Shown here: piece by piece, positions 1,717 through 52,214 of the stretch
How positions within the stretch are numbered: position 1 is the stretch's first letter
Layout: each line of letters starts with the position of its first letter
Assembly: GCF_000715075.1 (NCBI RefSeq)
Contig: NC_134084.1
Span: forward strand, 102,776,411 to 102,840,410
Length of the DNA stretch: 64,000 bases
Source of the DNA: Nicotiana tabacum
Lineage: Eukaryota; Streptophyta; Magnoliopsida; Solanales; Solanaceae
Direction: 5' to 3'
Translations under genes and position numbers: made by a program
Notes under the pieces: generated by a model
Database searches by the model: none
What the model saw: only the letters and a program-made list of their open reading frames with translations
Told to the model about the DNA's origin: nothing

Positions 1717-1726
1717 ACTGAAACCA

Positions 1727-5208: not shown

Positions 5209-5251
5209 GCGCCTGCGTATCCTCTTTGAGGAATCAGGTCAAACGTAGTTC
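5209..5251 (-). other. Structured junction motif, copy 6 (minus)
   Basis: Minus strand starts GAACTACG and has the inner hairpin TCCTC-AAA-GAGGA; the outer 3' arm is CGCAG, giving one mismatch. It corresponds to the post-integrase copy at 47893 of the plus-strand Ogre. Confidence 0.7.
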
Positions 5252-6611: not shown

Positions 6612-6660
6612 AGATTGCCTACGTATCATGACCCCGCATGAATCAGACCTTGCGTAGTTC
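6612..6660 (-). other. Structured junction motif, copy 5 (minus)
   Basis: Minus strand keeps the outer arms CTACG/CGTAG, but the inner hairpin is TCATG-CGGGGT-CATGA, different from the CTCAC/GTGAG copies and still fully paired. By position and sequence it corresponds to the ORF1-gag spacer copy at 40052. Confidence 0.75.
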
Positions 6661-7500: not shown

Positions 7501-7644
7501 TGACAAAATTAAAATTTGACATATATTTTTTATTTATTTGTTTTTTGGCTATTTTAGCAAAAGGTGGGTTGGACATCACCCGACTTATTTATGACAAGAT
7601 TAAAATTTTTGATTTTTAGCTATTTTAGCAAAAGGTGGGGTTGG

Positions 7645-7702
7645 ACCCGATGAGGGTTGCCTACGTATCTCACATCCGGTGAGAATCAAACCCGCGTAGT
7701 TC
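7645..7702 (-). other. Structured junction motif, copy 4 (minus)
   Basis: Outer arms CTACG/CGTAG and inner arms CTCAC/GTGAG. It is the last unit of the roughly 230-bp repeat in transcript order. Confidence 0.75.
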
Positions 7703-7875
7703 GGGCAAATAAGCTATTTTTGAGAAGACCCTTTTCCATCTCTATTTTTTTTTATTATTATTATTCTTTTTTCACAACAATCACATAGACTATTATTTTT
7801 TCATTCATAACAAACAAACAAATTAACGAAAAACATAAGACATTCCTTCTTTTTTTTTTTAGAAGGTGGGGTTGG

Positions 7876-7933
7876 ACCCGACGAGGGTTGCCTACGTATC
7901 TCACATCCGGTGAGAATCAAACCCGCGTAGTTC
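7876..7933 (-). other. Structured junction motif, copy 3 (minus)
   Basis: Same arms as the neighbouring copies; downstream the plus strand reads CCCGACGAGGG instead of CCCGATGAGGG. It is part of the roughly 230-bp tandem repeat. Confidence 0.75.
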
Positions 7934-8100
7934 GGTCGAATAAACTATTTTTGAGAGGACCCTTTTCCATTTTCTATATTTTTTTTGTTTTTATTATTTT
8001 TCCCACAACAATCAAATAGACTATTATTTTTCATTCATAACAAACAAACAAATTGACGAAAAATATAAAACATTCCTTCTTTTTGAGAAGGTGGGATTGG

Positions 8101-8158
8101 ACCCGATGAGGGTTGCCTACGTATCTCACATCCGGTGAGAATCAAACCCGCGTAGTTC
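8101..8158 (-). other. Structured junction motif, copy 2 (minus)
   Basis: Same as the copy at 8341-8399: outer arms CTACG/CGTAG, inner arms CTCAC/GTGAG with loop CGGAT. It is part of the roughly 230-bp tandem repeat. Confidence 0.75.
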
Positions 8159-8340
8159 GGTTGAATAAACTATTTTTGAGAGGACCCTTTTCCATTTTCT
8201 ATATTTTTTTTCTTTTTATTATTTTTCCCACAACAATCAAATAGACTATTATTTTTCATTCATAACAAACAAACAAATTAACGAAAAACATAAAACATTC
8301 ATTCTTCTTCTTTTTTTTTTTTTTTGAGAAGGTGGGGTTG

Positions 8341-8399
8341 GACCCGATGAGGGTTGCCTACGTATCTCACATCCGGTGAGAATCAAACCCGCGTAGTTC
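8341..8399 (-). other. Structured junction motif, copy 1 (minus)
   Basis: Minus strand reads GAACTACGCGGGTTTGATT, then CTCAC-CGGAT-GTGAG, then ATACGTAGGCA. The outer arms CTACG/CGTAG and the inner arms CTCAC/GTGAG are complementary. Confidence 0.75.
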
Positions 8400-33840: not shown

Positions 33841-36058
33841 TGTGAGCACCTAATTTTTGACAATATTTAATTTTTTTGTCACTTCTTCTATGTAAATATT
33901 TTAGGGGGTTTTAACATACAAATTTTTAGCTTTGTTATACTTTTTATTATAGGTTAAAAATACAAAATTTTAGAAGGTGAATTATTACTATTAATATTAT
34001 TTTATTTTTATTCTTATTTTTAAATAATAATAAAAAATCCGAAAAATATTAATTTTTTTTTTAAAATTTTCGGGAGATATTTAAAAAATAAGAAAAAGGG
34101 AAGTATGGAATTAAAAAAAAAAGTAAAAGTAGGTGGAATTCTCTTTTAAAAAGTAAAAGAAAGTGAAAAATTAAAAAAATAAAAGTAAAGTTTTGTGGAA
34201 ATTTTTAAAAATAAAAAGTAAAAGAAAGTTGGAATTAAAAAATAATATAAAGGTAGCTGAAAATTTAAAAAAAATTAAATTAAAATAAAGTAGAATTTTT
34301 TAAAGAAAAGTAAAAAAAAAAGTGGATTGTTTTTTTAAGAAAAGTAAAATAAGTGGAATTCTCTTTTAAAAAAGTAAAAAAAAGTGGGATTTTAAATAAG
34401 ATAAAAGTAAAGTTGGAATTTAAAAAATAAAAGTAAAGAAATGTGGTAATTCTTTTTGTAAAAAAAGAAAAGCAAAATGTAAGTGGGATTTCTTTTAAAT
34501 AAAAAAATTTAAAAAAAATATGAAATTTTTTGAAAATTCTCCTATAAATAGAAGAGAAATATTTGAAGAAAAGAAGAGAAGAGAAGAGGGAAGAATATTG
34601 AGAGAAAACAAATTTTCCTCTTCTATGCTAAAGAGAATTTTTACTAGTTTTATTCTTTCTACCTATTTCTTTCAACAACAAAAAAAAACATATAGCCATT
34701 CATTACCTTGTTTAAAAAAAATACCTCAAAAACAGGAGCTAAATCACACCAAAAATCAAATCCAAAAGCTTCAAACTCAATTTAAAAGATAGCCCAAAAT
34801 ACTAGCCCGAAGAGGTCGAAGTCGAGTTCGGTTCGAAAGGTTTCCGCTCGTTGCCTCTGATTGTGGTTCATTTGCACATTAAATTTGATGGTTGTTTGCT
34901 CCATATGTATTGAATAAGATCTTCATCTATAAAAGGTTCATTCTTTTCTTAACCAATGTTTCCATTATTTTTCTTTCACCGTATTTTCTTTTGATTTGTA
35001 TATTATATTTTGGTTATCTACCAACTTGAAAGATATGAACAAAAAAAATGAAGGAAGAGCATCAAGAAATAGAATTCGTGAAAGACAGAATGAGTTTCTT
35101 CAATGAGATTGTAGTTCATAGGGAAAGATAGGAAAATGTATTCAAAATGGAGAGAGAATGATGTAATAGCTTGGATCCAAATTAAAGGATGTTAAGTCAA
35201 TAGCAAATTTGATACCGACATGGGTGATTAGGTCCATAATAACTCAAATCATATATTTCTTCAATAATAATTCTATATTCATAAATCATGACCTTGCAAT
35301 AATCTCAAAGTAGTTTTAGGAAGAAACATAATCATGAATATTTGTAGTTTGCTTTAAATTGAATACAATCCTTTTAGAATAATCGAGGCGTGCCATGCCA
35401 AATAAAATCTCAAAACTCATGGCCCTCATTTAATTAATTTTAATCCTTAGAAATCGAGGCGTGTCATTTAGTTGAATTTTCCATGGCCCTCGCAAACTTG
35501 AAAGTGCGTAGTTGCTTTAGGCGCACTATTTTTTTTTAAAAAAAATAATTTCCTAAACTCGGGTGTGCATTTTATGTGACCCAAATCCAAATCTCAACAA
35601 CGTTAGATAAAATGTGTCGTGGACCGCGGGTGTATTTCATGTGACGTGGTTCAATACGTGTTTTATATGACGTTGAATTTTTCCAAAAAAAAATAATAAT
35701 TAAAAGCGGCTAATAAGTTAAAAATATACCATAGGTTGAAACATGTTTTAAATATCAGATAATAGGCCAATTGTAATAGTTTAAGCGACCGTGCTAGAAC
35801 CACGGAATCCGGGAATGCCTAACACCTTCTCCCGGGTTAGCAGAATTCCCTACTCAGAATTTCTGATTCGCAGACTTCAAAAGGAAAGTCGAAATTTCCT
35901 CGATTTGTGATTTAAAATAAATCGGTGACTTGGGACACCAAATAAACTATCCCAAGTGGTGACTCTGAATTGAATAATTAATCCCATTTCGAATAATGTC
36001 ATTTAAATTGGAAAAACTCCCTTATATACCTTCGGGTGTGTAAAAAGGAGGTGTGACA
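33841..36058 (+). repeat. 5' LTR of the plus-strand Ogre-like element
   Basis: Starts TGTGAGCACCTAATTTTTG and ends AAGGAGGTGTGACA (2218 bp). The first 700 bp are A-rich with repeated AAAAGTAAAAGAAAGT words. By eye it differs from the 3' LTR by scattered substitutions and A/T-run length changes only. Confidence 0.95.
34543..34550 (+). promoter_or_regulatory. TATA box of the 5' LTR
   Basis: TATAAATA in CTCCTATAAATAGAAGAG, the only strong TATA element in the LTR, kept in the 3' LTR at 50706-50713. Transcription would then start at about 34575-34585, leaving a U3 of about 0.7 kb. Confidence 0.65.
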
Positions 36059-36062
36059 GCTC

Positions 36063-36080
36063 TGGCGACTCTGCTGGGGA
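36063..36080 (+). other. Primer-binding site (tRNA-Arg type)
   Basis: TGGCGACTCTGCTGGGGA, four nucleotides (GCTC) after the LTR. Complementary to a tRNA ending in CAGAGTCGCCA, in keeping with the tRNA-Arg primer known for Ogre. Confidence 0.85.
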
Positions 36081-36815: not shown

Positions 36816-36880
36816 GAACTACGCGGGTCTGATTCTCACCGGATGTGAGTTACGTAGGCAAACCTCATCGGTTCCGGCCC
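36816..36880 (+). other. Structured junction motif, leader copy 1
   Basis: GAACTACGCGGGTCTGATT, then CTCAC-CGGAT-GTGAG, then TTACGTAGGCA. Outer arms CTACG/CGTAG and inner arms CTCAC/GTGAG. The tail CCTCATCGG is shared with several other copies. Confidence 0.75.
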
Positions 36881-37461
36881 ATAATTTTCAAAAAAAAAAA
36901 AAATCCAAAAATATTTTTCTTTACTTCCTCTCTAGAAAAGTCTTTTTTTGAAACCCCAATTTTCAAAAAATCCAAAAAAAATATTTTCCATTACTTACTT
37001 CTTTAGAAATTAATTGTTTTTTTAAAAAAAATATATATAAAAAAATATTTCTTTTACTGCTTCTTTAGACCGTAATTGTTTTTAAAATATATATATATAC
37101 AAAAATATTTTCTTTTAATTTCTTCCAAAATCCAAAAATATTTTCATTCTTCTTTCAAAATTGAAAAGAAAAATCAAAATTCAAAAATATTTCATTTTTT
37201 TAGAAGCATTTCTTTCATAAATTCAAAATAAAATTTCAAAAATATTTTTCTTTCTTCTTTAGAAGTTTTTTTTTCTATCGAAATTCCAAAAAAAAAACAG
37301 TAAAAGTCTAAATTAAAAAAAATCTTTCTTCTTTCGAAATTCCCCAAAAAAAAAATTGAAATCAAAAATATTTTCTTTCTTCTTTATAAGTCTTTCTTGC
37401 GGAAATTAAAATATTCCAAAAAAAAAAAAGTTAGTTTATTTACTTTATTTTTTGTCTTCCC

Positions 37462-37523
37462 GAACTACGCTAGTTTAATTCTCACCGGATGTGGGATACG
37501 TAGCAACCCTCATCGGGTCCAAC
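37462..37523 (+). other. Structured junction motif, leader copy 2
   Basis: The outer arms CTACG/CGTAG are kept. The inner arms are CTCAC/GTGGG, so one pair becomes a T-G wobble. Same tail (CCCTCATCGGGTCC) as the minus-strand leader copies. Confidence 0.75.
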
Positions 37524-37844
37524 TTCATTTTTTTAAAAATAGCCCAAAAAGAACAAAAAAAATTGTTTTAATTGTAAATAAGAAGGTGATGTCATTCTTG
37601 TCTAAAATAGTTGAATGTCCCCAAAAGGGCGCCGGAAGGCCGTTTTTGCAAGAACAACCACCTTTAGTAGTTTTTTTAAGGTTTTGGCAGTTTAGCAAAC
37701 ACAACCTTAAAATCTTCTTCCCCGAAGTGCTGAAAGGCCGTATTTGCAAAGCCGGATTTTTTATGAAAATTTAAAAAAAAAATAGTGATAACCTTTTCTT
37801 GAGTCATAACCTTTTAAATTAAATCACCCTAATAAATGTGCAGG

Positions 37845-39796
37845 ATGATCACAGATGAAAACGAACCCTTCGCAGCTCTTGAATAGATCCCCTTACAGCT
37901 CCACATGTGGTGGAATGACCTAGGAAAAGGTAGCCGAGGAACTGTGATAAAAGTTTTGGGTGGTCTTGTCGGACTTTTTAACATCAAGCCAAGATTGGAC
38001 GTGATTGAAGCCTTGATACCTTTTTGGGATCCGACTCGCAATGTGTTTCGCTTTTCTGATTTTGAGCTCACACCCATGCTAGAGGAAATTGCAGGTTACG
38101 CCGGCCTAAGCGGAAACCTTAGAAGTCAGTACCCGGTGTCACCAAGACCAGTATCTCCTCACAAGTTTCTGGATATGTTGAGTATTAGCCGGGATATTCA
38201 GGATGGGAATTTATCTGGAGGGTTTTGCACTTTCCAGTTCCTGTACCAACGCTATGGCAATCCCCAAGGTTTCGAAGCACCGAATACTGGTCTGACCCAT
38301 GCTGGAAATAAAGATAAATGGGAGGCAAGGCGGGGTTTGGTTTTTATAATGTCCGCGAAAAGACGGCAACATAGAATTGGGCCTCGTGGAAATGGTTGAT
38401 GTCGCAATCAAGAAAGCTAATGGCACATTAGTTCCCCTGATCTTATCTGAGATTTACCGAGCTTTGACCATCTGTCGAGAAGGGGGAAATTCTTCCAAGG
38501 CTGCAACTTACTACTACAATTGTGGATACTGGAACATCTCTGCCACCGTGTCGGATATATGAACTACGGCATGACCGGTTTGGATTGCATCAAAGAATTT
38601 GAAAGCCGAGTGGCGGGGGTTGAATTTCCAGAGGGTACCGAAGCTTGGTTTGCCCACTTGAGTTCTTTAACTTTGGATAAAATTGAGTGGACGTTCGGAT
38701 GGCTCCCTGCCACCGAAGTCATATACATGTCAGCTAAAGTGTGCTACTTTCTCCTAATGGTCATCCGGAGCATCCAGCCATATACTCCTCACAGGGTTTT
38801 GCGCCAACTAGGAAGATTTCAAACCGTCCCCATGACGAAGATTTGAGTGTACATGTCGTCGAATTGGGCCCAAAGGCTGTATTTCCAGAAGGAAGAGTTC
38901 GCCAAGTTTGGAATGAGTGCAGATTTCTCGAACCCAAGACTATGGTGCGGGATCTAGCTAGAGGTGAGGTGGACCCCAATTATATGGTTTGGTTTGGCAA
39001 AAGATTTCAAATTCCTCGAGAGCCCGAGAGACCTGCTAAGAGACCTCATGTCCAACAATTCACTAACGACTCGCAGGAGCAGTGGGGCTGGTTGGCAAAA
39101 GAAGAAAGCTATAGGGCTAAGATAAGTAAATTAGAGGGACAAATCAGGGACCTTAAATTTGGCCATAGTATCCAAGCTGCCGCAGATGAAGGGGAAAAGA
39201 AAAAGCTAACTCAGGAAAACGAAGCTCTCAAAGCTCAAATCCATAAAATGAGAATAGCTGCTAGAAACCCGGAAAGAAGCCGGGCAGATGAAAGGCTTAT
39301 AAGCGGTCTGAGAAAAAAAGTACTTGAGTGTCAAGATGACCTAGAAAAATCTGAGGCTAGTCTAGCAAAAGTCCGAGCACAATTGGCAGAGAATGCAGAA
39401 GGGCGGGCAGAGTTTGTGCGACAAATGAAAAGAAAATATGAGGGGACAATCGCCAATTTAAAGAGAAAGCTAATCACCCTTGAAAATGAGGCGGACAAAC
39501 AGGCCAGGAATTTTAAAGCCGATAGGGAACATTGTTATGCTTTGATGGCCCAAATGGACGAAGATATGCAACAATTGCGGAATCAAAATCATCATGACAC
39601 TCAAGTGTTGGAAGCCCGGAATCAGCAAATCGGGCGTTTACTTCAGGAAAAGGGTATTGTCCGAGAGAGGGTTAGAGCCATTGCCGACTACATCGTCATG
39701 AAATGCCACGCATGTGAGGATATGACTCAGACCACTTTCTTCGCTGCTGTAATGACATTTGTCCGCCAGATAATAAGTGATTTGGAGCGGCTTTAA
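37845..39796 (+). pseudogene. Ogre ORF1 (plant mobile domain-like plus coiled coil), broken
   Basis: The likely start is ATG 37845 (MITDENEPFAALE), followed by an in-frame TAG at 37884. The N-terminal part (to about 38400) has GLVGLFNIKPRLDVIEALIP, FWDPTRNVFRFSDFELTPML and EEIAGYAGL. This is the extra ORF known upstream of gag in Ogre; I recall it being linked to the plant mobile domain or DUF7745 families. The middle continues in other frames through 38377-38846 (LILSEIYRALTICREGG; EWTFGWLPATEVIYMS). The C-terminal 300 residues (38850-39796) are highly charged coiled coil (QENEALKAQIHKMRIAAR) and end CEDMTQTTFFAAVMTFVRQI. At least three frameshifts (near 38370, 38495 and 38740-38850). Role unknown. 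Confidence 0.75.
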
Positions 39797-40510
39797 GGGG
39801 ATCTCGCACGTAGGCCCGTGAGACCGAATTATGTTCCACCGGCCCCAGGAGTCGAAACATTGATGTATTCATGATTTTTCACTTATTGAGTTTGTATTTT
39901 GGAAATTATTTTTTAGTCTGTTGGTAGTTTTAAAATTCCAAGAAAATGAGTTGTTTGAAGTCTTTTGTAATAGAAAGTTTAGGAGTTTTATTAATGAAAA
40001 TTTGAAAATTCCCAAAAAATTGTTTCTTTATTTTTCGCACTTATTTTTCTTGAACTACGTAATGATCTGATTCACGCGACGTCGTGATACGTAGGCAATC
40101 CTCATCGGATCCGGTCACGATTTTTGTAAATAACTCAAATAAGAGAGGGATGTGAAAAACAGAGCCAAAGAAAAACCAAAAGAAAAACGAAAAAAAGGGC
40201 AAGGAAAGAGAGGAAAGAAAAGAGTGGAAAATGGGAATAAGAGGAGAAGTACAAAAGCCAAAAGTGGAAAGAAAAACAAAATTGGGAAAATAAGCAGAGC
40301 CGGGATGAAACATGCAGCCGTTGCGAAACATGTAGAAACACATTTAATTGTATAGGTGCATCACCCCCAACGTGCGATTTTCTATGTGTTAATTGCTTCA
40401 AACTAACTGGTTTGTTGTCTACTATTGTAAAGGTTCTATAGTAAGGTGGTTGGTTTTGTGGTAGTCTGGCTTCACATTCATACTTCACAAGGTCAAAAGG
40501 AAGCGTTGAA
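39797..40510 (+). other. Spacer between ORF1 and gag
   Basis: Non-coding, about 0.7 kb. It carries one structured motif copy (40052-40117) and then an A/G-rich stretch (40140-40300). Open frames on the minus strand here (40041-40731) are complements of this biased sequence and of gag. Confidence 0.7.
40052..40117 (+). other. Structured junction motif between ORF1 and gag
   Basis: Outer arms CTACG/CGTAG. The inner hairpin is TCACG-CGACGT-CGTGA, different in sequence from the leader copies yet fully paired. Confidence 0.75.
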
Positions 40511-42895
40511 ATGTCTTCGGAAATTCCTCTGCCAACAGTTCCTATTCCAGAGGATAGTCCGATCTCGGCCATCCCAACTTCTGAGTCAGCAACGGCTGAG
40601 GAAAATAGAATTCTGCGTCTCCGCATGATGGAAATGTGGGACGCCTGGGCCAATGGAAAAGAACCGCCAAGTGAGATCCCTGGATTCCCTGAGCTTTTTC
40701 CCAGGGCAAGTAGGACCTCCAACATCCCCATAAGTTATCCAAATACCCCACTGGGATATCCTACCATTTCAGCCCACTTTGTTGGAACACCTTCTGAGTC
40801 TCGCCCCCAGGTGTTAGCTTCAAGTGCGGCTTCAAATATATTCACCGCGCCACCTTGTTCAGCTACGACACAACCTGCTTTACCCAGGCCTAACTTTGAT
40901 TCATCTTCCTTCACATTTCAAGCACCATCTTTCCCAGTGGAACCTCCTCAGTTTCCTACTTATACTTACCCTCAACCACCCCAATTTGAGTTCACTGCGG
41001 GGCAAGAAAAGACCACCAAAACTCCTGAGCAAGAAGAGATTGTGAGGAAGATGAGGAGTATGGAACAGAGTCTCAAAAGCATAAAAGGCTTGAGTGGACA
41101 GAAAAGTGTATCCTATGCCGACTTATGCATGTTCCCTCATGTGCACCTACCATTGGGATTCAAAACCCCAAAATTTGAGAAGTACGATGGGCATGGTGAT
41201 CCTACTGCTCATCTCAAGAGATATTGCAATCAGCTGCGAGGAGCCGGTGGAAAGGAAGAACTACTCATGGCCTATTTCGGAGAAAGTCTGGTTGGCATCG
41301 CATCTGAGTGGTACATGGACCAGGATATATCCCGCTGGTACATCTGGGATGATCTTGCTAGAGATTTCGTCAGGCAGTTCCAGTACAACATTGATATTGC
41401 TCCAGATAGGAACTCATTGACAAACTTGAAAAAGAAATCCTCAGAAAGCTTCCGAGAGTATGCAGTTAAATGGCGTGAGTAAGCATCCAGGGTAAAGCCT
41501 CCGATGGATGAGGTTGAAATGGTCACAGTTTTCCTTCAAGCTCAGGAAGCTGACTACTTCCAAAATATGATGTCCGCAATGGGTAAACCGTTCGCTGAAG
41601 CTATCAAGATTGGCGAAATGGTTGAAAATGGGCTGAAAACGGGTCGAATTCTAAGCCAATCCGCTATCAGATCTACCTCCCAAGCCATTCAGGGTGGGTC
41701 TGGAGGAATAGCAAAGGGAAAGAAAAAGGAAGAAACATCCATAGAAGTGTCGGGTGCAAGGAGAAATTGTACTCCCATATCCCTTTTCTCAGAAAGGACC
41801 CCGCAGCACTATTACCCTCACCAAGACTTGGCCTATACTCCTCAGCCATACTCAGTCATGAATGCTCAGCCTTATGTCCGGACACAACAACAAGCCAACA
41901 GAAATCAAGCTCCATTTCCTAGAAACCAACCTCCTTACCAAACCCACTACAACCCCCGCCCTCCACAAAATAATTTACACCCTAATGAACCGCCCAAGAG
42001 GCTAAATTTCACACCAATTGGCGAAACCTACTCCATCCTGTTACCAAAGCTTGTTCAAATGGGTCTGCTACAGCCTGTTCCTCAAACCAGGCAAAACCCA
42101 GCATCACCCGCTTACAGAGCCGATACCCGATGCGCCTATCACTCAGGGGAAGAAGGGCATGACACAGATGATTGCTGGACTCTGAAGAGAGCCGTGGAGA
42201 ACTTGACAGAACAAAGGAAGATAGTGCTGAGGGATGAAGATGTTCCCAATGTGATCAACAACCCACTGCCAGCCCACAACAACGGGCCGGTAATTGGAAT
42301 GATTTGTGAGGATAAGGAATTTGACCCAGCATTGAAGGCCATCATTTCCATTGCTGACGAAGAAAAGAAACCAAAAGCTGCCCCGAAGCAAGATAAAGGG
42401 GAGAAAAAGAAAGAAACCACCCCTCCAAAGTCAGAGAAGAAAATTGAAGTTGAGACCGGGGCAACGCCTCCCAAAGATGTTGTTCTCTACGTCCCTCAAG
42501 GCCGTAAAGAAAAGCAGATGACATTGAGTCCTCCCAGGAGATTCGAGCTGAACAAAACAACCCAGATATATGTGCCCAAGAGGGCTTATGTGATGCGGGG
42601 GCCAATTAAGCCATCGAGGCTGAATGAGCCCGTGGTTATTGGACGCGCGCCATAGAAGCCCATGAAAGATCCTACTGTTGTGCCCTGGAACTACAACAAA
42701 ACGGTGGTGACCTATAAGGGCAAAGAAATCCCAGGAGAAGTTCAAGAAAATAACCCTTTTGAAAAGTATTCCAATTTGGAAGAGGTGAACAACGCTAATA
42801 GAAAGCGCTTCCCACTTAAGAAGCCCGTGAGTGCCGAAGAAGCGGAGGCTTTCTTTCAAAACATGAAAATGGCAGATTATGAGGTGATTGACTAG
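40511..42895 (+). pseudogene. gag of the plus-strand Ogre-like element, with stops
   Basis: Starts MSSEIPLPTVPIPEDS, with a Pro-rich N-terminal region. The capsid core reads FEKYDGHGDPTAHLKRYCNQ, ESLVGIASEWYMDQD, FVRQFQYNIDIAPDR and ESFREYAVKW. A zinc-knuckle-like element is CAYHSGEEGHDTDDC (about 42131-42175), a C-x2-H-x5-H-x4-C pattern instead of standard CCHC. In-frame stops are TAA at 41480 (WRE-ASRVKPP), TAG at about 42653 (RAP-KPMKD) and TAG at about 42893 (VID-LRKFPEQ). Two of these are easily explained as C-to-T changes of Gln codons. The frame is otherwise continuous, so decay is by point mutation. Confidence 0.88.
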
Positions 42896-44068
42896 CTTCG
42901 AAAATTTCCCGAACAAGTCTCCTTGTTGGCTTTGTTGATGAACTCCGCCGAACATCAGAAGGTATTGATCAAGAGCCTTAACGAAGCATATGTGCCTGTT
43001 GACACTTCTGTAGAGCAGTTGGAGAGAATGGTAGAAAGATTTTTCGCAATCAACCAGATCACTTTTAGCAAAAATGATTTGCCCTCAGAAGGGGCCGCAC
43101 ATAACAAAGCCCTGCACCTAACAGTCAAATGCAAAGGGCACTACGTGAAAAGGGTTATGTTGGACGGAGGCTCTAGAGTAGACATTTGCCCACTTTCAAC
43201 TCTACAGCGCATGGAAATCGGGATCGAAATAATCCGACCCAACAATGTCTGCGTACGTGCCTTCGATGGCATCAAAAGGGACACAATTGGATAGATCATT
43301 CTAATTCTGATCATCGGCCCAGTAGACTTTGAAGTAACCTTCCAGGTTCTAGACATGGACACATCCTACAACTTTCTTTTGGGGAGGCCATGGATTCATG
43401 CAGCGGGGGTTGTACCCTCTACTCTTCATCAGATGGTGAAGTTCGAGCATGAGGATCAAGAGATCGTGGTCCACGGAGAAGATGAGCAATCAATTTATCG
43501 GGACCCATTAGTCCCATGTCTTGAAGCAAGAGAGGGGAGTGAGCACATAGTTTATCAGGCTTTTGAAATTGTGGTTGCAGACCAGTACAAAGAAGGAAAC
43601 CCTTGCCCCCAACCCTTCCTTTCTAATGCATCAATCATGGTGTCCAAAGAAATGATCTGACATGGCTTCAAACTGGGGAAGGGACTTGGGAAATCATTGC
43701 AAGGGATAGTTGAACTTATCACCCTGCCCACCAGTGAAAAGTTCTTCGGGGTAGGCTTCCGACCCACTCCAGCTGATATAAGATGGGCAGATGATAGAAA
43801 GAATGATGGTTGGGTCTTGCCTCAGCCGGTTCCGCATCTGTACAGAACATTTGTCAAGCCAAAATACCAGAAGAAAGAAGAAGATGAGGCCTTTACTGCC
43901 GAAGAGATTGAAGAGATCTGTGGGGCAATGAGGAAGATACTATATGAAACCCACATGGTCCAGCCAGGGGAGGGCTCAAGCACCGCTGAGGTGCTGTATA
44001 TGGGACCCAATGCCAAGCTGCAGAATTGGAAGGCTACGCCATTCCCAATCAAGCGGGAGTCCCGGTAG
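42896..44068 (+). pseudogene. Protease region of the plus-strand Ogre-like element, with stops
   Basis: The aspartic protease core is RVMLDGGSRVDICPLSTLQ (about 43153-43209), with D-G-G in place of D-S/T-G. Downstream are [20 protein letters not shown] (flap and second conserved block) and a Gly-rich GKGLGKSLQGI after the stop at 43660, resembling a G-patch. Stops are TAG at about 43292 (DTIG-IILILII) and TGA at about 43658 (KEMI-HGFKLG, a CGA to TGA change). The ORF ends PFPIKRESR at 44068, shortly before the putative intron. Confidence 0.82.
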
Positions 44069-44260
44069 ACCTGTCCTGACACTTTTTCTGCATCGCGAGT
44101 TATGTCAGAGTGTAACTCGGATGTTTTTCTTTAGTTTCTTGTCTTTTAATTTCCAATGTAAACCCTGTTATCTTCAAATTCAAAGAAATGAAATCATATT
44201 TCATCGTCCATCCTTCTTTATTCTTTCTGATTTTGTTATTTTTTCTCTTTTTTCTTTCAG
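44066..44260 (+). other. Putative intron between pro and RT
   Basis: The sequence after gag-pro has no coding character and ends in a pyrimidine tract TTTTCTCTTTTTTCTTTCAG at 44241-44260, a strong 3' splice site. The donor is uncertain; GTAGAC at 44065-44070 is one candidate. Ogre elements are known for an intron here whose splicing fuses gag-pro to pol. Confidence 0.55.
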
Positions 44261-44305
44261 CTCTAATAATGTGGCTTAAAATAACATGACAAGCTTGCGG
44301 ACTTC

Positions 44306-46390
44306 ATGCCAGATCCAAACACGTTGTCTAACTGCGAAATAATGAACCAAAAACCGGAATATGATGAAGAAGAGGCTTTTAAGGAAATAAATCGAGAATT
44401 GGAACAATTTGAGAATAAACCTAAGCCAAACTTAAATGAAACCGAGCCGGTTATTTGGGTAGCTCTGAAAAAGTCAAAGAAACCAAGATAAGCATTCATA
44501 CAGATGAAAGAACCAGGGACGCATTGATCCAACTTTTGTTTGAATTCAAAGATGTGTTTGCTTAGTCATACGATGACATGCCAGGATTAAGTGTCGATTT
44601 AGTGGTCCATAAGTTGCCAACCTACCCTGATTATTCCCCTATCCAGCAAAAACAGAGGAAGTTCAAAATTGATATCAGTGACAAGATTAAAGAAGAGGTC
44701 ACAAAATAGTTAAAGGCGGGAGTGATCCGAGTGGTCCGATACACCACATGGCTGGCTAATATAGTTCATGTGCCAAAGAAAGATGGGAAAATCCGGGTGT
44801 GCGTTGACTACCGAGATCTGAACAAAGCAAGCCCCAAGGACAATTTACCTTTGCCAAACATCCACATCCTTGTTGATAACTGCGCCAAACATGAAATACA
44901 GTCTTTTGTGGATTGCAGGATACCACCAGGTGTTGATGGATGAAGAAGATGTAGAAAAGACGGCTTTTACCACACCTTGGGGCACTTACTGTTATAGAGT
45001 CATGCCATTTGGTCTGAAAAATGTTGGGACAACCTATATGAGGGCCATGACTGCCATTTTTCATGATATGATGCACCAAGAGATAGAGGTGTATGTGGAC
45101 GATGTAATCATCAAATCCAAAACCCAGGACGACCACGTTCGGGACATGAGAAAATTCTTTGAGCGGCTGCGCAAATATGATTTGAAGCTGAACCCAGCCA
45201 AATGTGCATTTGGGGTACCATCCGGCAAACTCTTGGGATTCATAGTCAGTCGGAGGGGCATCGAGTTAGATCCAACAAAGATAAAGTCTATTCGGGATTT
45301 GCCTCCTCCAAGAACCAAGAAAGATGTTATGAGTTTGTTGGGAAGATTGAATTACATCAGTCGTTTCATTGCTCAATTAACCTCCACGTGTGAACCCATA
45401 TTTAAGTTGTTAAAGAAAGATGCGGCAATCAAATGGACAGTTGAATGTCAAGAAGCTTTTGATAAAATCAAGGAATATCTGTCAAATCCGCCAGTCTTGG
45501 TCCCACCTGAGCCAGGGAGGCCTCTGTTCTTGTACCTGACCGTCTTGGAAAATTCTTTTGGCTGTGTCCTCGGGCAACATGATGTGACCGTAAAGAAGGA
45601 GCAGGTCATTTACTATCTGAGCAAGAAGTTTACTAGTTATGAAGCCAAGTACACTTTATTGGAAAGAACTTGTTGTGCTTTGACATGGGTCGCTCAGAAG
45701 CTGAGGAATTATTTGCAAGCTTACACTACCTACCTCATAACCAGGTTGGATCCTTTAAAGTACATATTTCAGAAACCAATGCCCACTGGGAGATTAGCAA
45801 AGTGGCAGATCTTGCTCACGGAGTTTGACATAGTCTGTGTCACTCGCACGGCAATGAAAGCCCAGGCATTAGCGGATCATTTGGCTGAGAACCCGATTGA
45901 TGATGAGTATCAACCTTTGAGAAATTACTTCCCAGATAAAGAAGTAAATTCAGTTGAGGCAATATCTGAAGACACTCATGCTTGGAAAATGTTCTTTGAT
46001 GGGGCGGTAAACGCAAAAGGTGTTGGAATTGGGGCAATTTTGATCTCACCCACTGGTCAGCACTATCCAGCCATATCTCGGTTTCGGTTCTTCTGTACAA
46101 ACAACACCGCCGAGTATGAAGCTTGAATTATGGGTATAAACATGGCAATCGACCAAAATGTCGAAGAGTTGTTGATCATGGGAGACTCAGATCTGATTAT
46201 CCGGCAAGCCCAAGGAGAATGGGAAACCCGAGATGTTAAGCTTATCCCTTACAAGAAGCATGTGGAAGACCTCAGCAAGCGATTCAAGTCAATAGAGTTC
46301 AGGTACATTCCTTGTTGTCACAACGAATTAGCCGACGCACTTGCTACTTTGGCCTCAATGCTGCCGTATCCAGGCAATGCTCACATAGAT
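44306..46390 (+). pseudogene. Reverse transcriptase and dual RNase H of the plus-strand Ogre-like element
   Basis: RT blocks: VHVPKKDGKIRVCVDYRDLN (about 44770), TTPWGTYCYRVMPFGLKN (about 44970) and the catalytic EVYVDDVIIKS (about 45088-45120). The connection or first RNase H-like part has PLFLYLTVLENSFGCVLGQH and YYLSKKFTSYEAKYTLLERT. The second, archaeal-type RNase H known from Tat elements reads MFFDGAVNAKGVGIGAILIS, TAEYEA, IMGDSDLI and HNELADALATLA, with Asp, Glu and Asp visible. Damage: a frameshift near 44455, TAG near 44565 (FKDVFA-SYDDM, expected Trp), TAG at 44707 (EEVTK-LKAG, expected Gln), a frameshift near 44915, and TGA at 46124 (TAEYEA-IMGI, expected Cys). Confidence 0.9.
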
Positions 46391-47710
46391 CCCTTGGAAA
46401 TTCAAATCCGGGAAAGGAATGGTTATTGTAATACAATTGAAGCAGCACCAAATACCCAACCATGGTACCATGACATCAAAAAGTTTCTGAAAACTCAAGA
46501 ATACCCCGAGCAAGCCAGTGGAGACCAAAAGAGAACCATTAGATGGCACGCGAGTGGTTTCTTTTTGAGTGGGGATGTCTTGTACAAGAGAACTCCGGAC
46601 CTCAATTTGTTAAGATGTGTTGACGTAGAAGAGGCTGGAAGAATCATGCATGAGGTACACGCGAGAGTATGCGGGCCCCACATGAATGGGTATGTTTTAG
46701 CAAAGAAAATCCTTCGAGCGGGTTATTACTGGATGACCATGGAAAAGGACTGTTTTAGTTTTGTTCGGAAGTGTCCACCGTGTCAGGTGCACGGTGATTT
46801 GATTCATGCACCTCCCACCGAACTGCATCCCATGTCTGCACCTTAGCCATTTGTTGCCTGGGGCATGGACGTCATTGGGCCAATCACGCCAAAAGCCTCA
46901 AATGGACACAGATTCATACTAGTTGCCATTGACTACTTTACAAAATGGGTTGAAGCAATCACTCTCAAGTCTGTCACCAAGAAAGTTGTGGTAGATTTCG
47001 TGCACTACAATCTTATCTGCCGTTTTGGCATTCCTGCAACTATTATCACGGACAATGCTGCAAACTTGAATAGTCATTTGATGGGGGAGATATGTGAGCA
47101 ATTCAAGATAATGCACCGAAACTCTACTCCTTATCGGCCTAAAGGCAATGGTGTCGTTGAAGCAGCAAACAAAAACATCAAAAAGATTTTGAGAAAGATG
47201 ATCCAAAGTTCCAGGCAGTGGCATGAAAAGTTGTCGTTTGCATTGTTGGGATATCGCACTACTGTGCGCACATTAATTGGAGCCACCCCGTATCTTTTGG
47301 TTTATGGCACAGAAGCCGTAATACCCGCCGAGGTTGAAATCCCCTCTCTCCGAATCATTGTTGAAGCCGAAATTGAAGACAGTGAGTGGGTTAAAACCCA
47401 TCTGGAACAATTAACCTTGATCGATGAAAAACGAATGGCTGCTGTTTGCCACGGGCAGTTGTACCAACAAAGAATGGCTCGTGCCTATAACAAGAAAGTG
47501 CAGCCTAGAAGTTTTGAAGTGGGGCAACTCGTTTTAAGGCGTATTCTTCCCCATCACTAGGAAGCAAAAGGAAAATTCGCTCCTAATTGGAAGGGCCCAT
47601 ACGTCATCAGAAAGATATTGTCGAGATGAGCATTGTATCTGGGCGATATCGAAGGAAATGATCCTGAAGCAGCTATAAATGCGGATGCAGTCAAAAGGTA
47701 CTATGTTTAG
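46391..47710 (+). pseudogene. Integrase of the plus-strand Ogre-like element, with stops
   Basis: The HHCC zinc-binding part is visible as MHEVHARVCGPHMNGYVLA followed by VRKCPPCQVHGD. Core residues: Asp in FVAWGMDVIGP (about 46868), Asp in TIITDNAANLNSH (about 47050) and Glu in GNGVVEAANKNIKK (about 47160). The C-terminal part includes LPWKG-type FAPNWKGPYVIRKIL and YLGDIEGNDPEAAINADAVK before the final TAG at 47708. Internal stops are TAG at 46844 (MSAP-PFVAWG, expected Trp), TAG at 47558 (LPHH-EAKGK, expected Gln) and TGA at 47627 (ILSR-ALYLG, expected Gly). All lie in one frame from 44870 onward, so decay is by substitutions. Confidence 0.9.
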
Positions 47711-47892
47711 TCTTTCTATAATAACAACATTGTCTGATTGGGAGGATGAAGGCTTTTATTCTCGCTACCCAAACACTATCTACCCTTTGCAAACCCATTT
47801 GTGCCGGTTACTCTTCTTTGATTGCCCTCTTTGGAACTTGAAAGTGTTATTGAAAAAAAAATAAATGAAAAAAAAGAAGAAGATGTTTTCCT

Positions 47893-47930
47893 GAACTACA
47901 TTCGACTTGATTCCGAAAGGATACGTAGGC
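47893..47930 (+). other. Structured junction motif after integrase
   Basis: GAACTACATTCGACTTGATT, inner hairpin TCC-GAAA-GGA with a GNRA-type loop, then TACGTAGGC. The outer arms pair as CTAC/GTAG. Confidence 0.7.
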
Positions 47931-48171
47931 AGCGTCTCTATGGGGTTCTGTCACACCAAAATAAAAATCCAAATTCCCTCAAAAGTAAAACTGGGGCAGA
48001 TGTTGTAATGGTCCTGCGATAATCCCGCTTGAATGGTTCCAAAGTTGTAATTCGATCCAAATCATTTTACCCAAATCCTTTCAAGTCCTTCCGATCAATC
48101 AGTGAGAATGTTCAAGGATCAGAGAATACAGCTACTTGGATCTGATGCAATAAAAATGAGAGAAATAAAAT

Positions 48172-48360
48172 GAGAGAGTCTTATTGGTGAAAACCCACAC
48201 GGGCACCATAAGGCGACGGTGAGCAGAAAAATTGAAAATGAGATAGCCTCGTTAGTGAAAACTCGTAAAGAGTACTATCAGGCAACGGTGAGAAGAGAAA
48301 TGAGAGAGGTTGATTGGCGAAAACCCGCAAAGGGTGCTGTCGATCGAAAAGAAGACACCT
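48172..48360 (+). repeat. Tandem repeat, about 65 bp, 3 diverged copies
   Basis: Copies start near 48172, 48237 and 48302 (GAGAGAGTCTTATTGGTG; GAGATAGCCTCGTTAGTG; GAGAGAGGTTGATTGGCG). The arms TGGTG/CACCA in copy 1 are matched by TAGTG/TACTA in copy 2. The homologous block in the other Ogre (4900-4640 minus) has GGTG/CACC and TAGTG/CACTA. Confidence 0.75.
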
Positions 48361-48539
48361 CCCACCACTGAAAGAGTCCTGGCCAGGTTTCTCGATTTGG
48401 AGATGTGGTTCACAATGAGTTGGATAGTTGTGCATATCGGGTATCCAGTCCAAGAAGCATGTCATATCTATTGAAGTCTGCATGCACCCTAGATAAGTCT
48501 TTCTTTCCCCCAAAAGGGATGCACCCTAGATAAGGCCTT

Positions 48540-49230
48540 CGTTCCCTAGTCGCATTTTGCCAACATTAGGGCTCCAATCCCTAAGTTGAGATTTTTTAGA
48601 CATAGGGCCTCCATCCCCTAGTCGCCTTTTGCCAACGTTAGGGCTCCAATCCCTAAGTTGAGATTTTAGACATAGGGCCTCCATTCCCTAGTCGTCTTTA
48701 TTGCCAACATTAGGGCTCCAATCCCTGAGTTGAGATTTTTAGACATAGGGCCTCCATTCCCTAGTCGTCTTTTACCAACATTAGGGCTCCAATCCCTGAG
48801 TTGAGATTTTTAGACATAGGGCCTCCATTCCATAGTCGCATTTTTTGCCAACATTAGTCGCCTTTTTGCCGATATTAGGGCTCCAATCCCTAAGTTGAGA
48901 TTTTTAGACATAGGGCCTCCATTCCCTAGTCGCCTTTTGTCAACATTAGGGCTCCAATCCCTGAGTTGAGATTTTTAGACATAGGGCCTCCATTCCCTAG
49001 TCGCCTTTTGCCAACTTTAGGGCTCCAATCCCTAGTTGAGATTTTAGACATAGGGCCTCCATTCCCTAGTCGCCTTTCTTTTCCAACATTAGGGCTCCAA
49101 TCCCTGAGTTGAGATTTTTAGACATAGGGCCTCCATTTCCTAGTCGCTTTTTTGCCAACATAGGGTATCCACTCCCTAGTCGAGGTTATTTTAGATATAG
49201 GGATCCATTCCCTAATCTCTTCCTCCTAAA
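48540..49230 (+). repeat. Tandem array, about 70 bp unit, about 9 copies
   Basis: Each unit has two small hairpins: TTAGGG-CTCCAAT-CCCTAA (or CCCTGA) and TAGGG-CCTCCATT-CCCTA, separated by GTTGAGATTTTTAGACA and GTCGCCTTTTGCCAACA. Copies vary in length; some lack one half (near 48835-48870 and 49160). Confidence 0.9.
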
Positions 49231-49789
49231 GACACGCAATCCTTATTTTACCGCTTTCAAAACAAAAAAAAAGTTTAGATTTTAGTTACAAATAACTTAC
49301 GAAATTTTCCTAGTGAAAACTGGGGCAGAAAAATTTCATTCGTTTGTTTGTTTTGGTGTCTGAGCAGGTTTGGCCTCGAGGCACAAGGTCTGAGACAACC
49401 AAAAGAATGAGTCTCAATCCAAAATAAAGAAAAGAAGAAAAGAAGCAAAAAGAAATGAACTCAAAGTGTTGATGTAGAGAAAGATGTGGACTGTTCAAGA
49501 TATGATTGAAGTCACAAGCTTCGCATGTCCCGCCTTGATCCGAAAAGCTGAAGAAGAATGAACCAGCAGTTGCAGCTAACGAGCATCAAGATTCAGATCA
49601 GAGTCTGCAGGAAGAACCAGTCAAGATCAAGGACAAGTTTCACAAGACTCATAGATAGGAATCTTGTAACTCATAGCTGATAGGCTTGTTTAGTTTCTCT
49701 TTGATTTTTGATATAATAATAGGATCACGGACCAGGGCCTCGACGGAACCTCACTCGACTCCTCAACTCATCATTCCATCATTTTTCTT

Positions 49790-49836
49790 GAACTACACGC
49801 GACCTGATTCCCTTATAACCCGGGATATGTAGGCTG
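49790..49836 (+). other. Structured junction motif before the PPT
   Basis: The outer arms are CTACA/TGTAG, a paired change relative to CTACG/CGTAG elsewhere. The inner arms are TCCC/GGGA. It lies about 135 bp before the polypurine tract. Confidence 0.75.
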
Positions 49837-49971
49837 TCCAAAACCAAGACTCGGTTGCACCCTTTCTCTTTTCTCTTATCCTTATTTCTTCTCTTTTGAA
49901 TAAAGATATGTTCAAAAATTAGTCACATGGCTCACCTTATCTTTGCTTGAAAACTCTTCATGTTTCCAAGC

Positions 49972-49980
49972 AAAGAGGGG
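49972..49980 (+). other. Polypurine tract
   Basis: AAAGAGGGG four nucleotides before the 3' LTR start at 49985, the expected plus-strand priming site. Confidence 0.75.
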
Positions 49981-49984
49981 CAGC

Positions 49985-52214
49985 TGTGAGCACCTAATTT
50001 TTGACAATATTTAATTTTTTTTTGTCACTTCTTCTATGTAAATATTTTAGGGGGTTTTAACATACAAATTTTTAGCTTTGTTATACTTTTTATTATAGGT
50101 TAAAAATACAAAATTTTAGAAGGTGAATTATTACTATTAATATTATTTTATTTTTATTCTTATTTTTAAATAATAATAAAAAATCTAAAAAATATTAATT
50201 TTTTTTTTAAAATTTCGGGAGAGATTTAAAAAAATAAGAAAAAGGGAAGTATGGAATTAAAAAAAAAGAAGTAAAAGTAGGTGGAATTCTCTTTTAAAAA
50301 AGTAAAAGAAAGTGAAAAATTAAAAAAATAAAAGTAAAGCTTTGTGGAAATTTTTAAAAATAAAAAGTAAAAGAAAGTTGGAATTAAAAAATAATATAAA
50401 GGTAGCTGAAAATTTAAAAATATTTAAATTAAAATAAAGTAGAATTTTTTAAAGAAAAGTAAAAGAAAGTGGATTGTTTTTTTAAGAAAAGTAAAATAAG
50501 TAGAATTCTCTTTTAAAAAAGTAAAAAAAAAGTGGGATTTTAAATAAGATAAAAGTAATTAAAGTTGGAATTTAAAAAATAAAAGTAAAGAAAGGTGGTA
50601 ATTCTTTTTATAAAAAAAGAAAAGCAAAATGTAAGTGGGATTTCTTTTAAATAAAAAAATTAAAAAATTGAAAAAAAAAAATCTGATTTTTTTTAAAAAT
50701 TCTCCTATAAATAGAAGAGAAATATTTGAAGAAAAGAAGAGAAGAGAAGAGGGAAGAATATTGAGAGAAAATAAATTTTCTTCTTCTATGCTAAAGAGAA
50801 TTTCTACTAGTTTTATTCTTTCTACTTATTTCTTTCAACAAAAAAAAAACATATAGTCATTCATTACCTTGTTTAAAAAAAATACCTCAAAAACAGGAGC
50901 TAAATCACACCAAAAATCAAATCCAAAAGCTTCAAACTCAATTTAAAAGATAGCCCAAAATACTAGCCCGAAGAGGTCGAAGTCGAGTTCGGTTCGAAAG
51001 GTTTCCGCTCGTTGTCTCTGATTGTGGTTCATTTGCACATTAAATTTGATGGTTGTTTGCTCCATATGTATTGAATAAGATCTTCATCTATAAAAGGTTC
51101 ATTCTTTTCTTAACCAATGTTTCCATTATTTTTCTTTCACCGTATTTCCTTTTGATTTGTATATTATATTTTGGTTATCTACCAACTTGAAAGATATGAA
51201 CAAAAAAAATTAAGGAAGAGCATCAAAAAATAGAATTCGTGAAAGCCAGAATGAGTTTCTTCAATGAGATTGTAGTTCATAGGGAAAGATAGGAAAATGT
51301 ATTCAAAATGGAGAGAGAACGATGTAATAGCTTGGATCCAAATTAAAGGATGTTAAGTCAATAGCAAATTTGATACCGACATGGGTGATTAGGTCCATAA
51401 TAACTCAAATCATATATTTCTTCAATAATAATTCTATATTCATAAATCATGACCTTGCAATAATCTCAAAGTAGTTTTAGGAAGAAACATAATCATGAAT
51501 ATTTGTAGTTTGTTTTAAATTGAATACAATCCTTTTAGAATAATCGAGGCGCTTCATGCCAAATAAAATCTCAAAACTCATGACCCTCATTTAATTAATT
51601 TTAATCCTTAGAAATCGAGGCGTGCCATTTAGTTGAATTTTCCATGGCCCTCGCAAACTTGAAAGTGCGTAGTTGCTTTCTATATTTTTTTAAAAAAAAA
51701 TTAATTTCCTAAACTCGGGTGTGCATTTTATGTGACCCAAATCCAAATCTCAACAACGTTAGATAAAATGTGTCGTGGACCGCGGGTGCATTTCATGTGA
51801 CGTGGTTCAATACGTGTTTTATATGACGTTGAATTTTTCCAAAAAAAAAATTAATTAAAAGCGGCTAATAAGTTAAAAAATATACCATAGGTTGAAACAT
51901 GTTTTAAAAATCAGATAATAGGCCAATTGTAATAGTTTAAGCGACCGTGCTAGAACCACCGAATCCGGGAATGTCTAACACCTTCTCCCGGGTTAACAGA
52001 ATTCCCTACTCAGAATTTCTGGTTCGCAGACTTCAAAAGGAATGTCGAAATTTCCTCGATTTGGGATTTAAAATAAATCGGTGACTTGGGACACCAAATA
52101 AACTATCCCAAGTGACGACTCTGAATTGAATAATTAATCCCATTTCGAATAATGTCACTTAAATTGGAAAAACTCTCTTATATACCTTCGGATGTGTAAA
52201 AAGGAGGTGTGACA
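49985..52214 (+). repeat. 3' LTR of the plus-strand Ogre-like element
   Basis: Starts TGTGAGCACCTAATTTTTG and ends AAGGAGGTGTGACA (2230 bp), collinear with 33841-36058. Confidence 0.95.
50706..50713 (+). promoter_or_regulatory. TATA box of the 3' LTR
   Basis: TATAAATA in the same context as 34543-34550 of the 5' LTR. It could drive read-through into the flanking DNA beyond 52214. Confidence 0.6.

What the first reader, a model, noticed from the sequence alone, without database searches (positions are those of the whole stretch)
36816..49836. A recurring structured motif marks the junctions between coding modules of the Ogre-like element
Seen directly: a motif beginning GAACTACG/A and ending near ACGTAGGC occurs five times on the plus strand (36816, 37462, 40052, 47893, 49790). 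Positions are two in the leader, one between ORF1 and gag, one after integrase, one just before the PPT. The arms CTACG/CGTAG can pair around an inner hairpin. The inner arms differ (CTCAC/GTGAG, TCACG/CGTGA, TCC/GGA, TCCC/GGGA), and the outer arms change together (CTACG/CGTAG to CTACA/TGTAG). Paired change points to selection for structure. Inference: a modular RNA element for processing, translation re-initiation, packaging, or protection of the genomic RNA. I know of no described function.
Basis: partly seen in the sequence, partly recalled or inferred. Interest (0 to 1): 0.9.

Follow-up and report, generated by a model that had tools for sequence, protein, structure and literature searches.

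The report
Pseudoknotted RNA motif in plant Ogre retrotransposons
Giant plant retrotransposons carry, in the gaps between their genes, many copies of a small RNA that folds into a knot; changes in its sequence are matched so that the knot survives, which suggests it does a job, although which job is still unknown.

Summary
The motif is real and larger than reported. All five sites exist. Six more lie on the minus strand in a second, coding-depleted Ogre-like element. The own genome (4.0 Gb) holds 53,472 exact matches to the core pattern, against 0 for the pattern read backwards. It is not a simple hairpin. The order is P1a-P2a-UGAUU-P3-AUA-P1b-GGC-P4-YC-P2b, so P2 crosses P1: a nested double pseudoknot of about 57-81 nt. 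P2 pairs were not in the model that aligned the copies, yet 91.1% of P2 cells pair and each of its four pairs shows a compensatory change. In a tree-based null test the five strongest of 2,080 column pairs are all pairs of this fold. G·U exceeds A·C in P2-P4 (55 v 20), pointing to the sense RNA. Helix order matches HDV-like ribozymes, but sequence constraints differ and Rfam gives no match. One distant copy lies 52 nt after the stop of a hAT transposase, in a contig mixing plant and bacterial DNA; 30 hAT loci of the own genome lack it. I favour a cis-acting transcript-protection or export module (about 0.4) over Gag packaging (0.3), ribozyme (0.12) or translation (0.08). No function was tested.

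The parts
33841..36058 (+). 5' LTR of the Ogre-like element E1 (96.2% identical to the 3' LTR); primer-binding region follows
36816..36880 (+). motif copy, leader class (P2 GGGTC/GGCCC)
37462..37525 (+). motif copy, leader class, partly decayed (P2 AGTT/AACT; one G of GGC lost)
37887..39796 (+). ORF1 region upstream of gag, in two frames: 37887-38399 (DUF7745) and 38738-39796 (no Pfam hit)
40052..40117 (+). motif copy, ORF1-gag junction class, 255 nt after the ORF1 stop (P2 TGATC/GGTCA)
40445..42655 (+). gag region in two frames (PF03732 in the first)
44822..47560 (+). RT-RNaseH, second RNaseH (aRH), integrase; aRH between RNaseH and integrase is the Ogre/Retand order
47893..47953 (+). motif copy, post-integrase class; P2 decayed (3 of 5 pairs)
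48530..49283 (+). 3' UTR minisatellite array (period about 71)
49790..49857 (+). motif copy just before PPT and 3' LTR (P2 GCGACC/GGTTGC)
49985..52214 (+). 3' LTR of E1
8335..8399 (-). motif copy, leader class, element E2
8094..8158 (-). motif copy, leader class, element E2
7869..7933 (-). motif copy, leader class, element E2
7638..7702 (-). motif copy, leader class, element E2
6596..6660 (-). motif copy, junction class, element E2 (no ORF1/gag found beside it)
5194..5251 (-). motif copy, post-integrase class, element E2 (no integrase found; P2 TGACC/GGTCA)

Best explanation
The motif is a compact pseudoknotted RNA domain of about 57-81 nt, read on the sense strand of the transcript. Helices P1 and P2 cross; P3 sits inside P1 and P4 inside P2. 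Nearly fixed unpaired letters (GAA before P1, UGAUU between P2 and P3, AUA between P3 and P1, GGC after P1, C before P2b) form a core. Supported by sequence evidence: the fold, the sense strand, the modular multi-copy placement in untranslated regions, and its presence in a coding-depleted relative. Inferred: the core is a binding site for a protein, host or element-encoded. I think its most likely role is cis-acting and post-transcriptional. It would protect or export the very long, incompletely spliced element RNA, and several copies in leader, junction and 3' UTR would add up or serve different transcript forms. I put the fold at about 0.9 and this particular role at about 0.4.
For: Fold: P2 cognate-swap test, 56 pairs against a mean of 41.4, 0 of 20,000 swaps. 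A10, 85 distinct rows: 92.6% of cells paired against 79.6% in shuffles (0/500), covariation score 0.435 against 0.208 (0/500), slid structures at most 40.6% paired. The five best of 2,080 column pairs are all structure pairs, two-set E about 1e-4 to 8e-3. Sense strand: G·U 55 against A·C 20 in P2-P4. The 15 distinct copies that do not match my search pattern keep P1 paired in 70 of 75 cells; over all 85 rows P1 shows C-G to U-A in 3 rows and G-C to A-U in 2. Role: in the loci where an element frame was recognised beside the motif it lies on the motif's strand (both strands searched for seven loci). In four loci whose polyprotein frame is open to its end the post-integrase copy lies 171-277 nt behind the stop; in six loci the junction copy lies 158-255 nt behind an ORF1 stop. 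E2 keeps six copies without detectable ORF1, gag or pol, which suggests action in cis. A hAT copy 52 nt behind the transposase stop, if it stands, excludes packaging or reverse transcription as the general role. Ogre RNA is spliced only in a subset of transcripts in pea and Medicago (PMC6317226, passage), so export or stability of the unspliced form is a real need.
Against: The hAT case is one copy, in a MAG contig that also holds bacterial ssb and ribosomal genes. The 30 hAT loci cut from the own genome (of 89 scored, 8,788 candidates) lack the motif. The nested part is not the minimum-energy fold: mean MFE is -14.3 kcal/mol over 67 rows, while the 25 rows printed for the design run from -8.6 to +1.4, apart from one that could not be scored. 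So the fold needs the pseudoknot, Mg2+ or a protein. Taken one copy at a time, the P2 partner is mostly not significant (1 of 12 p-values below 0.05). Nearly all copies come from one genome and one lineage, so independent changes are few: all-pairs E values are 0.017-0.97 for the top five and 0.05-6.2 in an earlier run; in A7 two of five measures do not beat the shuffles clearly (31/500 and 88/500). P1 shows 8 A·C and no G·U cells. Seven genome-wide copies with purines at the end of P2a are not compensated. There are no RNA data of any kind.
Confidence: 0.45

Rival explanations
1. Packaging or dimerisation signal: the element's Gag binds the pseudoknots, several copies along a long genomic RNA raise avidity, and non-autonomous relatives keep them to be packaged in trans.
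For: Several leader copies in E1 and E2; retained in coding-depleted E2 and in loci with a shortened gag-like frame (L035, L036, L046 match E1 gag by tblastn; the L035 frame has no Pfam hit); five copies in a row in the L109 and L113 families.
Against: A DNA transposon has no packaging step, yet a hAT copy exists (one case). Copies also sit after integrase and before the PPT, far from the usual leader position.
Confidence: 0.3
2. Self-cleaving ribozyme with HDV-like helix order: it would cut the polycistronic transcript at the junctions.
For: Helix order P1a-P2a-P3-P1b-P4-P2b is that of the nested double pseudoknot; conservation begins sharply at G1; a near-invariant C lies in J4/2 (70 of 73); junction positions fit processing.
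Against: First J4/2 position is U in 41 of 73 and C in 31, whereas the HDV-like catalytic C is the first position (PMC10879173, passages). Conserved J2/3 and J3/1 loops are foreign to that class (recalled). No Rfam match. Five or more cuts would destroy the genomic RNA.
Confidence: 0.12
3. Translation element: internal entry or re-initiation at the next frame.
For: In seven junction-class loci an ATG frame of 83 codons or more begins 291-459 nt behind the motif start.
Against: The post-integrase, pre-PPT and hAT copies stand behind the last known frame of their element.
Confidence: 0.08
4. No function: a repeat that seeds minisatellites, with structure by descent only.
For: Copies occur in tandem arrays (for 7632-8401; for L109/L113); 3' UTR arrays of other sequences are known in Ogre relatives (PMC3305785, abstract and results section).
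Against: Compensatory changes and the tree-based null; unpaired core letters stay fixed while stems vary.
Confidence: 0.04

Closest known systems
HDV-like (delta) self-cleaving ribozymes, used by several retrotransposons
   Same: Nested double pseudoknot with the same helix order; a C in J4/2
   Different: Here many sequence-constrained unpaired letters, 5-nt J2/3 and 3-nt J3/1; the C is the last, not the first, J4/2 position; P3 length is free with very short loops; many copies per element; no Rfam match
ENE triple-helix elements of plant transposons (e.g. Evade; PMC12501189, passages read; Tycowski et al. 2016 not held, known through it and by recall)
   Same: Structured RNA in untranslated regions of plant transposons; in Evade it stabilises the RNA
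   Different: No U-rich internal loop to grip a poly(A) tail; pseudoknot instead; also present in the leader
Retroviral constitutive transport / RNA stability elements (recalled)
   Same: Cis-acting, sense-strand, conserved internal loops, serve unspliced RNA
   Different: No sequence or fold relation shown; several copies per element here
Retrozymes with hammerhead ribozymes in plants (PMC4918200, search listing with start of abstract only)
   Same: Structured RNA motif in plant retrotransposons
   Different: Hammerhead has a three-way junction (recalled); here a pseudoknot, and no Rfam match of any family in the window
Ogre 3' UTR minisatellites (Gmr9/GmOgre, PMC3305785)
   Same: Repeats between integrase and 3' LTR of the same lineage
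   Different: Those are tandem satellites, with no RNA structure described in the parts I read; the motif is separate from the E1 array at 48530-49283

Membership tests
HDV-like ribozyme | Nested double pseudoknot, helix order P1a-P2a-P3-P1b-P4-P2b | tested here: met
HDV-like ribozyme | Catalytic C at the first position of J4/2 | tested here: not met
   col 79: U 41, C 31 of 73; the conserved C is col 80, 70 of 73; definition from PMC10879173
HDV-like ribozyme | Match to an Rfam family | tested here: not met
   0 at gathering score in the window; only 2 unrelated sub-threshold hits in 36700-37600
HDV-like ribozyme | P1.1 pairs between L3 and the letters after P1b (definition recalled) | tested here: not met
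   by eye: L3 is as short as GAAA or AAA (47893, 5251) and not conserved
HDV-like ribozyme | Self-cleavage 5' of P1 | not testable with these tools
   needs in vitro transcription
ENE triple-helix element | U-rich internal loop flanked by G-C pairs | tested here: not met
   internal loop is UGAUU / AUA; definition from PMC12501189
Ogre (Tat) LTR retrotransposon (element E1) | aRH domain between RNaseH and integrase | tested here: met
   definition PMC6317226
Ogre (Tat) LTR retrotransposon (element E1) | Extra ORF upstream of gag | tested here: met
   DUF7745 in 37887-38396 and a further frame 38738-39796 without Pfam hit; plant mobile domain itself not found
Ogre (Tat) LTR retrotransposon (element E1) | Intron between gag-pro and RT | not tested
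   no transcript data
Gag packaging signal | Specific Gag binding and packaging | not testable with these tools
   needs experiment

The most novel reading that the evidence does not exclude
A new class of functional RNA, a double pseudoknot with its own conserved core. It would be used by unrelated plant transposons (Ogre LTR retrotransposons and a Sapindaceae-type hAT DNA transposon) through a common host factor, possibly with catalytic activity, and be present in tens of thousands of copies in a single genome.
Probability: 0.25. Interest if true: 0.93.

Novelty: new variant of a known kind. Interest (0 to 1): 0.78.

Why it matters
Ogre elements fill large parts of many plant genomes, yet their cis-acting RNA signals are little known (both recalled). 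A motif with 53,472 exact core matches in one genome and a compensatory fold offers a ready handle on export, stability or packaging of their RNA, and a natural mutational scan of a pseudoknot. If the hAT case holds in clean assemblies, unrelated transposons share one RNA device, which would point to a host factor.

Tried and rejected
P4 and the crossing P2 were found by reading the letters behind the 'end'.

Search for the motif in viral contigs: two patterns gave 22 and 3 loci; I read the matched stretches and their near flanks and took them all for chance matches. Protein scans with integrase, RT and the hAT transposase gave no relatives. A blastn search of phage records gave none.

Prokaryote genomes: one match. 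It looked bacterial but the neighbouring frame is a plant hAT transposase. Its best relative is unnamed (96% identical); the nearest named ones are from Dipteronia (77% over 80% of the query), Acer (73-80% over 31-55%) and Xanthoceras (best 120 of 258 listed).

General hAT link: rejected for the own genome so far. Only the 30 loci cut out of 89 scored matches were examined, all 30-33% identical to the query.

Ordinary thermodynamic folding: the MFE does not give the fold.

Register error: and in the P2 line I set P2 one column off (57.0% and 33 of 59 cells). One search has the right columns (91.1%). The P2 line for the 15 non-pattern copies alone was not redone.

Scripts that failed: missing file; redone; stopped after 21 of 59 rows; one search printed the upstream frames from there on, so downstream frames were seen for the first rows only.

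Rows dropped: seven rows fetched for purines in P2a and one truncated row were left out and identical rows merged (77 left); one search left out the truncated row (67 left). L027 is counted as largely unpaired in P2 and P4 because the model misplaces its long P4.

Literature: ten searches showed no description of this motif among the titles listed. The lists were capped (for example 20 of 32 papers, 12 of 747), and letter searches cannot see sequences kept in figures or databases.
Full report
WHAT IS THERE. The window lies in a 4.0-Gb genome (G000); its elements are of plant type. E1 (33841-52214, +) is an LTR retrotransposon with 96.2% identical LTRs. It has an upstream ORF with DUF7745, gag, RT-RNaseH, a second RNaseH and integrase, in that order; the second RNaseH before integrase is the Ogre/Retand order (PMC6317226, passages). 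Six further copies lie on the minus strand (8399, 8158, 7933, 7702, 6660, 5251). They belong to E2, an Ogre-like element that matches E1 in leader, ORF1-gag junction and post-integrase stretches, but in which tblastn finds no ORF1, gag or pol better than E 0.5; its 3' LTR lies outside the window. Loci with similar copies keep a gag-like zinc-knuckle frame (L035; no Pfam hit), so E2 appears to belong to a coding-depleted type. Another Ty3/gypsy element of the window (RT and integrase at 23.3-26.0 kb, minus) carries no copy.

HOW COMMON. The exact core pattern GAACTACN{5,17}TGATTCN{3,33}TACGTAGGC has 27,120 + 26,352 = 53,472 matches in the own genome, and 0 for the reversed pattern. The motif is not a recent local copy.

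ANATOMY. From 5' to 3': G1 A2 A3; P1a CUACG; 1-4 nt; P2a (5 nt directly before UGAUU); UGAUU; P3 hairpin opening with a C-G pair; AUA; P1b CGUAG; GGC; P4 hairpin; YC; P2b. P2 spans P1b, so the two helices cross. P2 differs widely between copies yet pairs: GGGTC/GGCCC (36816), AGTT/AACT (37462), TGATC/GGTCA (40052), GCGACC/GGTTGC (49790), GGGTT/AACCC (E2 leader), GGTC/GACC (6660), TGACC/GGTCA (5251), GGCCTT/AAGGCC (L023/L027). The 47893 copy keeps only 3 of 5 pairs; its genome relatives L043 and L051 have GACT/AGTC.

TESTS OF THE FOLD. (a) Swap test: own P2b pairs better than any reshuffling tried, 56 against a mean of 41.4 for 12 copies and 41 against 29.3 for 9 distinct ones, 0 of 20,000 each. 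P2b places were chosen by me as the five letters behind the conserved C, which MAFFT aligned in one block for 11 of 12 copies without structure. A single-copy search for a P2 partner is mostly not significant: 1 of 12 p-values is below 0.05. The signal is in the comparison, not in single copies. (b) A covariance model R1 with P1, P3 and P4 only aligned 81 copies (A7) and then 98 copies (A10). A7, 68 distinct rows: 94.4% of cells paired against 81.7% shuffled and covariation score 0.436 against 0.207 (0/500 each), P2 97.7%; the number of pairs with a double change (31/500) and of pair types (88/500) do not stand out clearly. A10, 85 distinct rows, including seven rows fetched for atypical P2a: 92.6% against 79.6%, P2 91.1% with compensatory change in all four pairs, P3 95.2%, P4 85.7%, P1 97.2%; slid structures reach at most 40.6%. 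(c) My own version of a tree-based covariation null (FastTree, Fitch, substitutions re-dealt; 60 null alignments; not R-scape itself): the top five of 2,080 column pairs are P2 14-85, P4 67-79, P3 25-52, P3 24-53 and P2 16-83. All-pairs E is 0.017, 0.067, 0.17, 0.27 and 0.97; counted only over the 17 structure pairs, 1e-4 to 8e-3. With changes allowed only in variable columns the all-pairs E values are 0, 0, 0.05, 0.1 and 0.22. An earlier run on 67 rows of A7 also had five structure pairs on top, at all-pairs E 0.05, 0.07, 0.18, 1.9 and 6.2. The structure had been proposed from 12 of these rows, so the two-set figures are somewhat flattering. P1 is nearly invariant and was part of the search pattern, so it carries little information in these tests. 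In the 15 distinct copies that do not match the pattern it pairs in 70 of 75 cells, and over all 85 rows it shows C-G to U-A three times and G-C to A-U twice. (d) G·U pairs outnumber A·C 55 to 20 in P2-P4 (P2 17 to 4, P3 7 to 6, P4 31 to 10; P1 0 to 8), which points to the sense RNA strand for P2 and P4 and is neutral for P3.

CONSERVED CORE. Letters of GAACUAC, UGAUUC and UACGUAGGC are high by construction in pattern-fetched copies. In the 15 copies outside the pattern they remain largely fixed: A2, A3, U5, A6, the U and final A of the AUA loop, and the A and G that end P1b are in 15 of 15. E1 and E2 are 75-91% identical in the motif against 34-71% in flanks, where random stretches give a median of 54%, a 95th percentile of 62% and a maximum of 66%, so some flanks also keep traces of kinship; motif GC is 0.48-0.57 against 0.18-0.39 in flanks.

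P2a IN THE WHOLE GENOME. Only 7 matches have two purines at the end of P2a and 9 have four pyrimidines, against 53,472 (slightly different gap limits). The seven are not compensated in P2b and look like decay; for the nine I have no letters behind the match. So within this genome P2 varies by transitions around G-R-Y-Y, while L027 keeps pairing with a quite different word.

PLACEMENT. In four loci whose polyprotein frame is open to its end (L033, L038, L045, L051) the post-integrase copy lies 171-277 nt behind the stop; in six loci (window, L032, L039, L044, L052, L055) the junction copy lies 158-255 nt behind an ORF1 stop. In seven junction-class loci an ATG frame of 83 codons or more begins 291-459 nt behind the motif start (first rows only). 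Two more divergent families carry five copies in a row behind integrase, 71-121 nt apart, L109 with a sixth further on. Where an element frame was recognised it lies on the motif's strand; both strands were searched for seven loci, in the others only the motif's strand was translated.

A COPY OUTSIDE RETROTRANSPOSONS. The only match in 257 Gb of prokaryote assemblies is in a roe-deer-gut MAG contig. It lies 52 nt behind the stop of a hAT transposase frame (PF05699, PF14372); the nearest named relatives are Dipteronia, Acer and Xanthoceras proteins. The contig runs on into bacterial ssb and ribosomal genes, so it probably mixes plant food DNA with a bacterium. By my own estimate (no call) about 3 chance matches to that pattern were expected, so the pattern alone proves nothing; the extra five-pair P3, the six-pair P2 and the R1 score (E 2.3e-6) make it a true relative in my judgement. 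The 30 hAT loci of the own genome that were cut out lack the motif. The hAT link therefore rests on one copy.

MECHANISM. Supported: an RNA-level, cis-acting, modular pseudoknot. Inferred: protein binding by the core. Retention in a coding-depleted element fits packaging as well as export or stability. The hAT copy, if it stands, removes packaging and reverse transcription as the general role, and positions without a following frame speak against translation. I therefore put a post-transcriptional protection or export role first (about 0.4), Gag packaging second (0.3), a ribozyme third (0.12) and translation fourth (0.08).

RELATION TO KNOWN RNAS. The helix order is that of HDV-like ribozymes, but the catalytic C position, P1.1 and Rfam tests fail, so I do not file it there; that it could cleave is not excluded. 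ENE elements do a comparable job in plant transposons (PMC12501189, passages) but need a U-rich internal loop that is absent here. No paper in ten searches described the motif in the titles listed, and the lists were capped; that is weak evidence of novelty.

Noticed in passing
L109:1211-1650 and L113:1121-1559: Divergent Ogre-type families carry five motif copies in a row behind integrase, 71-121 nt apart and strongly diverged from each other.
   Followed up: partly
window 1719-3717 (also 79-1722): Long minisatellite arrays (30-bp unit, 66.6 copies, plus 34-, 68- and 120-bp arrays) in the 3' part of the coding-depleted element E2.
   Followed up: no
L027 / JAFUBK010000065.1: A GTDB-listed Bacilli MAG contig contains a plant hAT transposase next to bacterial ssb and ribosomal genes: probably a mixed contig from a roe deer gut sample.
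   Followed up: partly
G000, whole genome: P2a is almost always G-R-Y-Y: 7 matches with RR and 9 with YYYY against 53,472 core matches, so P2 drifts by transitions only.
   Followed up: partly
window 23295-28056 (-): A further Ty3/gypsy element with gag, RT and integrase relatives that has no motif copy, a natural negative control.
   Followed up: no
window 36756-36940, 37402-37585 and 8275-8459: Leader copies of E1 and E2 sit in very A/T-rich, short-period sequence (flank GC 0.18-0.30), so the motif stands out as a G+C island.
   Followed up: no
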